From Litchfieldia alkalitelluris (GTDB lineage Bacteria > Bacillota > Bacilli > Bacillales > Bacillaceae_L): DNA of 64,000 nt. The notes beneath the pieces were generated by a model. It was not told the DNA's origin, ran no database searches, and saw only the letters and a list, made by a program, of their open reading frames with translations. Within the stretch, counting starts at the first letter, position 1. Each line of letters opens with the position of its first letter. The DNA lies in NCBI RefSeq assembly GCF_002019645.1, contig NZ_KV917374.1, forward strand, positions 3,546,696-3,610,695. The letters are read 5' to 3'. The position numbers and the translations under genes were made by a program. Of this stretch, positions 42,172 to 45,263 are shown one piece after another.

Positions 42172-42726
42172 ATGATTACAATGGATAACATAGTTAGAGA
42201 AGGACATCCATCTCTTCGTAAAGTGGCTGAAGAAGTAAACAATGAACCATCACATGATGAGAAAAGAATACTAGGTGAAATGTTAGAATTTGTGAAAAAT
42301 AGTCAAGATCCTCAGATTGCTGAGAAGTATGGCTTGAGACCCGGAATTGGACTTGCAGCACCACAAATAAATATAACTAAAAGAATGATTGCAGTACACC
42401 TTAAGGATAAAGATGACCGATTATATAGTTATGCACTATTTAATCCTAAAATAGTTAGTCATTCTGTAGAAAAAAGTTACCTTACACATGGTGAAGGTTG
42501 TTTGTCAGTAGATCGTGAGGTACAAGGAATTGTACCAAGACACGCCAGGATAAAAGTAAAAGGAAAAACAATTGATGGACAAGAAATTTTGATAAAACTC
42601 AAAGGTTTGCCTTCTATTGTTTTTCAGCATGAAATAGACCATTTAAATGGTGTGATGTTTTATGATCACATAAATAAGAATGATCCCTTTATGGTTCCAG
42701 AGAACGCTATTCCAATTGAACTATAA
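42172..42726 (+). CDS. defB: Peptide deformylase (DefB/YkrB type)
   Basis: A 184-residue Fe2+ (or Zn2+) hydrolase that removes the N-formyl group from new proteins. All three motifs are intact: GIGLAAPQ, EGCLSVD (metal Cys) and QHEIDHLNG (metal histidines and catalytic Glu). The length and the insertion between motifs are those of the Gram-positive type 2 deformylases, and it equals the 184 residues of B. subtilis YkrB. I use the ATG at 42172, seven bases after AAGGAGTG; the frame runs 8 codons further upstream. Monocistronic. Confidence 0.94.
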   Translation: MITMDNIVREGHPSLRKVAEEVNNEPSHDEKRILGEMLEFVKNSQDPQIAEKYGLRPGIGLAAPQINITKRMIAVHLKDKDDRLYSYALFNPKIVSHSVEKSYLTHGEGCLSVDREVQGIVPRHARIKVKGKTIDGQEILIKLKGLPSIVFQHEIDHLNGVMFYDHINKNDPFMVPENAIPIEL

Positions 42727-42775: not shown

Positions 42776-43003
42776 AATTCTCCCCAATTAACTTATCCTC
42801 TATATAGCTTCAGGTCATAGAACCAAAATCTCCTCTATTACAACAGTCAGAAATATTCCATTTTTACCCATGAAAAGGATTTGTAAAATATCATATACTA
42901 TAGATAGATAATAAAATACATTTAACCAGATTCGTACAAGCTATAAATTCTTTTTATTATAAATGTCCGTTTTAAATCTGTTAAAAGAGGAGATGATGTT
43001 ATC

Positions 43004-43075
43004 ATGCTTAAAAAGCTAAGAAAAAAAATACTAAGACAATGGTCTGATTTATTAAAGAAGAAAACAATCGCCTAA
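43004..43075 (+). CDS. Possible 23-residue cationic peptide
   Basis: A short frame from ATG at 43004 to TAA encodes MLKKLRKKILRQWSDLLKKK followed by TIA. Nine of 23 residues are Lys or Arg and the hydrophobic residues fall on one helical face, as in amphipathic membrane-active peptides. GAGGAG lies 11 bases upstream and a strong terminator follows 50 bases downstream, so a discrete transcript is likely. I know no homologue. It could be a genuine small protein, a type I toxin-like or signalling peptide, or a chance frame in a small RNA. The spacing of the ribosome site is longer than ideal. Confidence 0.5.
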   Translation: MLKKLRKKILRQWSDLLKKKTIA

Positions 43076-43124
43076 ATTGTGTAACAAGCTTACATTATCA
43101 ATTTTATTTACAAAATAACCTTCT

Positions 43125-43160
43125 GGGCCCTTCATAAATCAGGAGGGTCCATTTATTTTA
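43125..43160 (+). terminator. Terminator downstream of the small peptide frame
   Basis: A nine-pair stem (GGGCCCTTC with GGAGGGTCC, two G-T pairs) and an 8-base loop are followed by ATTTATTTTATT. Confidence 0.7.
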
Positions 43161-43305
43161 TTGATTTACTTTAAAAATCGGTTATGAGAAATATAATATT
43201 TTTTAAAAGTAGCGTTTTCATCTACTAAAAATAGGGAAATAAACATTATTCCGATATTACAAGTGATTTATTAAAATAACTTTTTTACTAAATAGTAGAA
43301 AAAAC

Positions 43306-43334
43306 ATGAAAAAGTTTCTATTTTTTTATATAAT
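43306..43334 (+). promoter_or_regulatory. Possible promoter of rpoY-rnjA
   Basis: ATGAAA (43306-43311), 17-base spacer, perfect TATAAT (43329-43334), about 47 bases before rpoY. Confidence 0.45.
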
Positions 43335-43380
43335 AGAAAAAGTGAATCTAACTTTCGGTAATTAAGGAGAGAATTGGCAA

Positions 43381-43590
43381 ATGATTTTTAAGGTTTATTT
43401 TCAAGAACAAGCTAACGAGGTACCTGTAAGAGAAAAAACGAAAACAGTATTTGTCGAAGCAGGATCTGAAAAAGAAGTTCGTACCAAATTAATTGATCGT
43501 GCAATTAACATTGAATATATTCAAAAAGTTGAAAAGGCTTTTCTAGAGTATGAGCAACAAAATGAAGACTTTAAAGTATTGGAGATTTGA
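43381..43590 (+). CDS. rpoY: RNA polymerase epsilon subunit (YkzG)
   Basis: A 69-residue subunit found in Firmicute RNA polymerase, resembling a phage-type inhibitor fold; its role is subtle and includes protection from phage proteins and tuning polymerase behaviour. The [20 protein letters not shown] start and the [20 protein letters not shown] core match the family. AAGGAGAGA precedes the ATG. It ends 5 bases before the rnjA ATG, forming the conserved rpoY-rnjA pair, so the genes are co-transcribed and probably translationally coupled. Confidence 0.93.
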
Positions 43591-43595
43591 TTCGT

Positions 43596-45263
43596 ATGAA
43601 ATTTGTTAAAAATGATCAAACAGCAGTATTCGCCTTAGGTGGGTTAGGTGAAATCGGAAAAAACACCTATGGTGTACAATTTCAAGATGAAATTATCTTG
43701 ATAGATGCCGGTATTAAATTCCCGGAAGATGAATTATTAGGCATTGATTACGTAATTCCAGATTATAGTTATTTAGTTAAGAACGTTGAAAAAGTTAAAG
43801 GTTTATTTATTACCCACGGACATGAAGATCATATTGGTGGAATACCTTATCTTTTAAAAGAAATAAATGTTCCAGTATATGGTGGGAAATTAGCTTTAGC
43901 CTTAATTAGAAATAAATTGGAAGAGCATGGTTTATTACGCCAAACGAAGCTTATTGAAGTTCACGAAGATGAAATCATTAAATTCAGAAAAACATCTGTA
44001 AGCTTTTACCGTACAACACATAGTATTCCAGATGCATTCGGAATTGTTGTAAAAACACCTCCTGGACAAGTTGTACATACTGGTGACTTCAAGTTTGATT
44101 TTACACCGGTTGGAGAACCAGCGGATTTAACAAAGATGGCTGAGATTGGAAAAGAAGGTGTTCTTTGCTTACTATCTGATAGTACTAACTCAGAGAATCC
44201 TGAATTTACGATGTCAGAGCGTCGTGTTGGCGATAGTATTAATGATATCTTCCGAAAAGTGGATGGACGATTAATTTTTGCCACATTTGCTTCTAACATT
44301 CATCGCCTTCAACAAGTTGTCGAATCAGCTGTTCAAAACGGTAGGAAGGTCGCAGTATTTGGACGAAGTATGGAAGCAGCGATTACGATCGGACAGGATT
44401 TGGGCTTTATAAGAGCTCCAAAAGAGACTTTTATTGAAGCATCTCAAATAAACCGTTTGCCGGCAAATCGTGTAACAATTCTTTGTACTGGTAGTCAAGG
44501 TGAGCCTATGGCAGCATTGTCTAGAATTGCTGGTGGAACTCATCGTCAAATTCAGATAATTCCAGGGGATACTGTAGTATTTTCTTCTTCACCTATTCCT
44601 GGTAATACAATCAGCGTAAGCCGTACAATCAATATGCTATATCGTGCAGGGGCTGAAGTAATCCACGGTCCACTAAATGATATCCACACATCAGGTCATG
44701 GTGGACAAGAAGAGCAAAAACTAATGTTACGTTTAATGAAGCCAAAATTCTTTATGCCTATACATGGTGAATTCAGAATGCAAAAAATGCATTCAAAGCT
44801 AGCTATCGATTGTGGTGTTCCTGAGAACCATTGCTTTATCATGGACAATGGTGATGTGCTCGCTTTAAGTGAAAATGAAGCATCAGTTGCTGGTAAAATC
44901 CCTTCAGGTAACGTCTATATCGATGGTAGTGGGGTTGGCGATATTGGTAATATTGTCCTAAGAGACCGCCGTATTTTATCTGAAGAAGGCCTTGTCATTG
45001 TTGTTGTAAGTATCAATATGAAGGATTTCAAGATTGCTGCAGGACCAGACTTAATTTCTCGTGGTTTTGTTTATATGAGAGAATCTGGGGATTTAATAAA
45101 TGATGCTCAGAGCTTAATTTCAAAACACTTAAATAAAGTAATGGAACGTCGTACAACGCAATGGTCAGAGATCAAAAATGAAATCACCGACACATTAGCA
45201 CCATTCTTATACGAAAAAACAAAACGCCGTCCAATGATTTTACCGATCATTATGGAGGTTTAA
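43596..45263 (+). CDS. rnjA: Ribonuclease J1
   Basis: A 555-residue metallo-beta-lactamase/beta-CASP nuclease with 5'-to-3' exonuclease and endonuclease activity, essential for mRNA turnover and rRNA maturation. The zinc motif HGHEDH is at 74-79, followed by HTGDFKFD and the beta-CASP block ([31 protein letters not shown]); [14 protein letters not shown] carries the later metal and substrate residues. The start is the ATG at 43596, giving the exact B. subtilis length; a TTG three codons earlier overlaps the rpoY stop. A strong terminator follows. Confidence 0.97.

What the first reader, a model, noticed from the sequence alone, without database searches (positions are those of the whole stretch)
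43004..43160. Possible cationic amphipathic peptide gene between defB and rpoY
A 23-codon frame with a GAGGAG ribosome site encodes a strongly basic amphipathic helix (9 Lys/Arg), followed by a good terminator. The whole unit is about 200 bases and independent of neighbours. Peptides of this kind include small toxins, modulin-like secreted peptides and membrane-binding regulators. Nothing comparable is known to me at this locus in B. subtilis.
Basis: partly seen in the sequence, partly recalled or inferred. Interest (0 to 1): 0.6.

Follow-up and report, generated by a model that had tools for sequence, protein, structure and literature searches.

The report
Ancient tiny gene before RNase J1
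A 23-amino-acid, strongly basic helical peptide gene, with no match in the family libraries searched, sits just upstream of the genes for RNA polymerase subunit epsilon and RNase J1 in Bacillus and many related bacteria, and has been kept by strong selection; what it does is still unknown.

Summary
The 23-codon frame at 43004-43075 has homologs across the order (257 of 396 genomes by sequence search) and beyond it, in Planococcaceae-like and other families. I read 152 distinct loci. The frame is never broken, dN/dS is about 0.09 (1.1 and 1.6 in the other two frames), and M1, L5, K20, I22 and A23 are nearly invariant. All 91 loci found through the peptide lie just upstream of rpoY and rnjA, whereas the distance to def varies from 99 to 1995 nt. 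In one genome where rpoY is not detectable, the peptide still stands before rnjA. About three quarters of the loci have a terminator right after the stop codon. Pfam, NCBIfam, Rfam, PDB, phages and plasmids give no credible relative. A secreted toxin or modulin is unlikely: the gene is single-copy, syntenic and under purifying selection. I judge it most likely an intracellular amphipathic-helix microprotein acting in trans with the RNA polymerase / RNase J1 module. A leader peptide controlling rpoY-rnjA is the main rival. The molecular function is not shown.

The parts
43004..43075 (+). Small gene: 23-aa basic amphipathic peptide MLKKLRKKILRQWSDLLKKKTIA
   Evidence: ORF; homologs; omega 0.09
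42987..42992 (+). Shine-Dalgarno GAGGAG (context AAAGAGGAGATGATG); in relatives AAGGAG(A)TGATCC
   Evidence: sequence; predicted anti-SD duplex -13.0 kcal/mol here, family median -13.8 against -10.0 for rpoY
43124..43151 (+). Intrinsic terminator of the small gene
   Evidence: terminator-like hairpin within 110 nt of the stop in 116 of 151 loci against 7 of 151 shuffles
42870..42899 (+). Candidate promoter ATGAAA-18-TATACT (lies in CATATACTA; similar ACGAAAA...ATACTA sequence in the B. subtilis group)
   Evidence: visual comparison; consensus match only
42951..42977 (+). Candidate proximal promoter region (weak here: TTTTTA-15-TTAAAT); in relatives TTTACTTTGGACAAGGATNGTTTAAAAT
   Evidence: two-hexamer pattern in 70 of 152 loci against 4 of 152 shuffles
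43306..43334 (+). Separate promoter-like site of rpoY-rnjA, ATGAAA-17-TATAAT, downstream of the terminator
   Evidence: TATAAT within 110 nt upstream of rpoY in 100 of 152 loci
43381..43590 (+). rpoY, RNA polymerase epsilon subunit (PF07288): invariant downstream neighbour in peptide-found loci
43596..45263 (+). rnjA, RNase J1
   Evidence: present in 91 of 91 peptide-found loci; identity of the gene from established knowledge of the family
42172..42726 (+). def (peptide deformylase): upstream neighbour here, at variable distance elsewhere

Best explanation
It is a real, ancient microprotein gene. A short transcript (about 150-250 nt) from its own promoter is translated from a strong Shine-Dalgarno site into a 23-33 aa cationic amphipathic helix with a short tail, and ends at its own terminator. 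The product most likely stays in the cytoplasm and acts in trans as a helix that docks on RNA, the ribosome, RNA polymerase, RNase J1 or the inner membrane face, in the transcription / RNA-decay module encoded next to it. Shown here: coding, selection, synteny, terminator, amphipathic pattern, and retention in genomes without the sporulation gene spoIVA. Inferred: cytoplasmic location, action in trans, and the link to RNase J1. Not known: the partner.
For: Homologs in 257 of 396 genomes of the order and in another family of the class. 152 distinct intact loci. omega 0.09, specific to the frame. 91 of 91 peptide-found loci have rpoY and rnjA downstream, while def is 99-1995 nt away. In G023, which has no detectable rpoY, MLKKLRKKILKRWSKLINQNLLPEF still stands 316 nt before rnjA. 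The helix (residues 1-17) is kept across families while the tail changes in length and sequence (23 to 43 aa...KKTIA...LLPKNRLIEV...VPTTCKKDYHQS), which suggests that the helix is the functional part. No conserved structure other than the terminator in a 50-sequence consensus fold. Kept in genomes without SpoIVA (G520, G480, G500, G578, G549, G563, G544), so it is not tied to sporulation.
Against: No expression, translation or phenotype data were available. The link to RNase J1 rests on position plus one rpoY-less genome, which is a draft. Strict position just upstream of an operon is also what a leader peptide would show. Many RNase J-bearing Bacilli lack a recognisable peptide, so it is not a universal RNase J1 cofactor.
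Confidence: 0.5

Rival explanations
1. Leader peptide: translation of the 23 codons, or stalling near the basic, conserved end, controls read-through of the terminator and so expression of rpoY-rnjA in cis.
For: 91 of 91 loci immediately upstream of rpoY-rnjA; terminator stem starts a median of 9 nt after the stop codon, close enough to be covered by a terminating ribosome; C-terminal K20, I22 and A23 are among the most conserved residues of the 23-aa forms.
Against: No conserved antiterminator in a 50-sequence consensus fold, full length or truncated before the 3' arm. Gap to rpoY varies from 31 to 563 nt, and a promoter-like TATAAT follows the terminator in 100 of 152 loci. C-terminal length and sequence differ between families, unlike arrest peptides. 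About a quarter of loci show no terminator. From general knowledge, RNA polymerase outruns ribosomes in B. subtilis, which works against coupled attenuation.
Confidence: 0.22
2. Dual-function small RNA: the short terminated transcript base-pairs with targets and also encodes the peptide, like SR1/SR1P.
For: Short transcript bounded by promoter-like sites and a terminator; SR1P and SR7P are precedents in which B. subtilis small-RNA-encoded peptides act on RNA decay (abstract of PMC8152036, listed).
Against: No Rfam match; no conserved RNA structure other than the terminator; apart from the ribosome site and promoter-like motif, I saw no conserved non-coding stretch.
Confidence: 0.13
3. Secreted or membrane-disrupting cationic peptide (toxin, bacteriocin or modulin-like).
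For: Charge and amphipathicity resemble membrane-active peptides; a dedicated transcription unit.
Against: Single-copy core-genome position in dozens of families; strong purifying selection rather than the diversity expected of antagonistic peptides; no secretion signal and no adjacent exporter or immunity gene at the window locus; absent from phage and plasmid collections; narrow hydrophobic face and low mean hydrophobicity.
Confidence: 0.07
4. Sporulation-specific small protein.
For: Most carriers are spore formers; a CATATACTA-like element resembles forespore sigma promoters.
Against: Kept in genomes without SpoIVA; not recognisable in several genomes that have it (G050, G243, G033, G077, G030, G357); promoter elements fit sigma-A at least as well.
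Confidence: 0.04

Closest known systems
SR1P / SR7P (B. subtilis small-RNA-encoded peptides that modulate RNA-decay enzymes)
   Same: Small peptide from a short terminated transcript in Bacillaceae with a possible link to RNA decay
   Different: From general knowledge, SR1P is about 39 aa and elsewhere on the chromosome, and acts through GapA; no sequence similarity seen; here the gene is adjacent to rnjA and the peptide is far more basic
Transcription-attenuation leader peptides (TnaC, vmlR leader type)
   Same: About 20-25 codons, placed before an operon, terminator right after the stop
   Different: No antiterminator, variable tail and spacing, separate downstream promoter-like site
Phenol-soluble modulins / cationic antimicrobial peptides
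   Same: Short amphipathic helix, 20-26 aa
   Different: Core-genome synteny, purifying selection, no neighbouring export genes, low mean hydrophobicity
SpoVM-type amphipathic small proteins of Bacillus
   Same: About 26 aa amphipathic basic helix that can act on a membrane (general knowledge)
   Different: No sequence similarity seen; kept in genomes without spoIVA; genomic context is transcription and RNA decay

Membership tests
Real protein-coding gene | Frame-specific purifying selection and intact frame in orthologs | tested here: met
   omega 0.09 against 1.09 and 1.57 in other frames; 152 distinct intact loci
Any Pfam / NCBIfam family | Match to a profile | tested here: not met
   no hit for the window peptide or eight diverse members
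Leader-peptide attenuator | Fixed position before the regulated operon | tested here: met
   91 of 91 peptide-found loci before rpoY-rnjA
Leader-peptide attenuator | Mutually exclusive antiterminator/terminator structures conserved | tested here: not met
   only the terminator is conserved in a 50-sequence consensus
Leader-peptide attenuator | Conserved stalling C-terminus at fixed length | tested here: not met
   tail varies from 23 to 43 aa total between families; conserved only within the 23-aa group
Leader-peptide attenuator | Translation-dependent change of downstream expression | not testable with these tools
   needs reporter assays
Dual-function sRNA (SR1-like) | Member of a described RNA family or conserved RNA structure beyond the terminator | tested here: not met
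Modulin / bacteriocin-like secreted peptide | Amphipathic helix | tested here: met
Modulin / bacteriocin-like secreted peptide | Export or immunity genes nearby, or mobile/variable location | tested here: not met
   neighbours are def, rpoY and rnjA; none in phages or plasmids
Modulin / bacteriocin-like secreted peptide | Membrane lysis or killing activity | not testable with these tools
   needs assay
Sporulation small proteins | Confined to spore formers | tested here: not met
   present in seven genomes without SpoIVA

The most novel reading that the evidence does not exclude
A dedicated peptide regulator or adaptor of RNase J1 and/or RNA polymerase, encoded at the head of the rpoY-rnjA locus and overlooked because annotation pipelines tend to skip genes under about 30 codons; it would tether or tune the 5'-exonuclease (for example to ribosomes, stalled polymerase or the membrane).
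Probability: 0.33. Interest if true: 0.82.

Novelty: new member of a known kind. Interest (0 to 1): 0.62.

Why it matters
A 23-codon gene under strong selection in most Bacillaceae, next to two central RNA-metabolism genes, appears to have escaped annotation, including (by close relatives) in the B. subtilis group. If it tunes RNase J1 or RNA polymerase it adds a component to the Gram-positive mRNA-decay machinery. If it is a leader peptide it reveals how rpoY-rnjA is controlled. Either is directly testable in a genetically easy laboratory strain.

Tried and rejected
Rfam scans of the window and of the local region: nothing. Pfam and NCBIfam with the peptide and eight diverse members: nothing. 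PDB profile search: one weak 10-residue match to phosducin-like protein 3, E 0.37, dismissed. Phage and plasmid tblastn: nothing. Antiterminator search by consensus folding: none. Peptide upstream of rnjA in rpoY-less Bacilli: only G023 positive. Ten literature searches gave no mention of a small ORF upstream of rpoY/ykzG, but only open-access full text is held, and supplements and SubtiWiki were not available. Table 1 of new genomic objects in PMC5743806 lists none at this locus. Forespore-sigma reading of the CATATACTA element: considered, not pursued, because TATAAT variants at the same place and carriers without spoIVA argue against it. Structure prediction was not run: the peptide is below the tool's 30-residue minimum for a single protein. 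The 50 sequences were chosen for a GCCCTTC-like arm, so their terminator conservation is partly by selection.

Full report
OBSERVATION. The frame is as described: ATG 43004 to TAA 43075, MLKKLRKKILRQWSDLLKKKTIA, nine Lys/Arg, GAGGAG at 42987-42992, and a 10-pair terminator hairpin at 43124-43151. The window lies in a 5.43-Mb genome; the best named match to the peptide is Litchfieldia salsa (91%), so the host is probably a Litchfieldia-like Bacillaceae.

CONSERVATION. A DNA search with 42880-43180 found, in the same genus and family, matches confined to the ribosome site plus ORF (query 88/109 to about 197 in most). A protein search of 396 genomes of the order gave 257 with a match at E up to 1, the listed ones nearly all full-length 1-23 without stops. 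A named-genome scan gave 35 loci in Litchfieldia, Robertmurraya, Peribacillus, Mesobacillus, Siminovitchia, Jeotgalibacillus, Lederbergia, Niallia and others.

Reading upstream of rpoY in families without a sequence hit uncovered diverged members with other tails: MLKKLRRKIINGCKNLLPKKRLIEV, MLKRWRERLLKRCRDLLPKKIYA, MLKRLKEKLKKRWKDFLGRGRVPTTCKKDYHQS, MLRRLRKKLKQKLRRILGRKGLLNNEYMKKDE. In total 152 distinct loci carry it. Rows for these were picked by a pattern (basic, 20-46 aa, SD present), so the most distant members rest on position plus pattern rather than on alignment scores.

B. SUBTILIS GROUP. All have a peptide of the type MLRKLRKKLRRQWNGMLRKKVIA or MLRRLRKKIRRQWKDMLRKKSIA about 115 nt before rpoY. 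B. subtilis 168 itself was not read, and I did not see its annotation; the open-access literature I could search says nothing of a small ORF there.

SELECTION. Over 1140 pairs of 129 orthologs: pS 0.604, pN 0.105, omega 0.092; the same DNA read in the other frames gives 1.09 and 1.57; entropy by codon position is 0.81, 0.55 and 1.41. M1 is invariant, and L5, K/R6, L17, K/R19, K20, I22 and A23 are nearly so; W13 is W in 103 and L in 19 of 129. Pairs are not independent, so omega is an average and not a test statistic, but the frame contrast is decisive.

CONTEXT. All 91 loci found through the peptide have rpoY and rnjA downstream; def, when upstream, ends 99 to 1995 nt away. So linkage is to rpoY-rnjA and not to the upstream gene. 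In G023, where rpoY is not detectable, the peptide still lies 316 nt before rnjA. Other rpoY-less Bacilli examined lack it. SpoIVA is absent from seven carriers (G520, G480, G500, G578, G549, G563, G544) and present in several genomes without a recognisable peptide, so sporulation is not the common denominator.

SIGNALS. Terminator-like hairpin within 110 nt of the stop: 116 of 151, shuffled 7 of 151, median stop-to-stem distance 9 nt. A two-hexamer promoter pattern just upstream: 70 of 152, shuffled 4. A TATAAT follows the terminator within 110 nt of rpoY in 100 of 152. Ribosome-site pairing with the 16S 3' end: family median -13.8 kcal/mol, rpoY -10.0, window ORFs of at least 150 aa -10.2; the window peptide's own -13.0 is matched or exceeded by 16% of those 44 window ORFs. 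Many relatives have AAGGAG(A)TGATCC, close to the full complement AAGGAGGTGATCC.

WHAT THE PEPTIDE LOOKS LIKE. Residues 1-18 form an amphipathic helix in 81% of members by permutation, best angle 95 degrees, net charge mostly +7 to +10, low mean hydrophobicity. There is no known relative in Pfam, NCBIfam, PDB, phages or plasmids.

MECHANISM. The helix is the part kept across families and the tail is not. There is no conserved RNA structure besides the terminator, and the gap to rpoY ranges from 31 to 563 nt. These points favour a peptide that acts as a protein over a stalling leader. Neighbouring rnjA and rpoY suggest, but do not show, that its partner is in transcription or RNA decay. A cis leader remains the main rival because the position is so strict and the terminator is so close to the stop codon.

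NOVELTY. A deeply conserved microprotein family that matches no model I could search. Bacterial microproteins as a kind are known, so I file it as a new member of a known kind; the location beside RNase J1 and RNA polymerase epsilon is what makes it interesting.

Noticed in passing
L015 / L227 (genome G023): rpoY is not detectable in this genome while the peptide and rnjA remain adjacent: an apparent loss of the RNA polymerase epsilon gene.
   Followed up: partly
L051-L085, 15-60 nt upstream of the peptide ATG: A TTTACTTTGGACAAGGATNGTTTAAAAT block is conserved between distant genera, including the spacer TTGGACAAG between the two promoter-like hexamers; part of it survives in the 5' region of the B. 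subtilis group. It may be an operator.
   Followed up: partly
window 43306-43345 and same place in relatives: The rpoY-rnjA promoter-like block ACATGAAAAA...TATAATAGAAAAAG is unusually conserved across genera.
   Followed up: no
G374:C1:3569-3637 and C1:3374818-3374886: Two copies of peptide plus rpoY in one single-contig genome; positions near both ends of the contig suggest an assembly overlap.
   Followed up: no
f49 loci L187-L203: In the Planococcaceae-like family the conserved Trp13 is replaced by Leu and the middle reads NGILGKK, a clade-specific variant.
   Followed up: no
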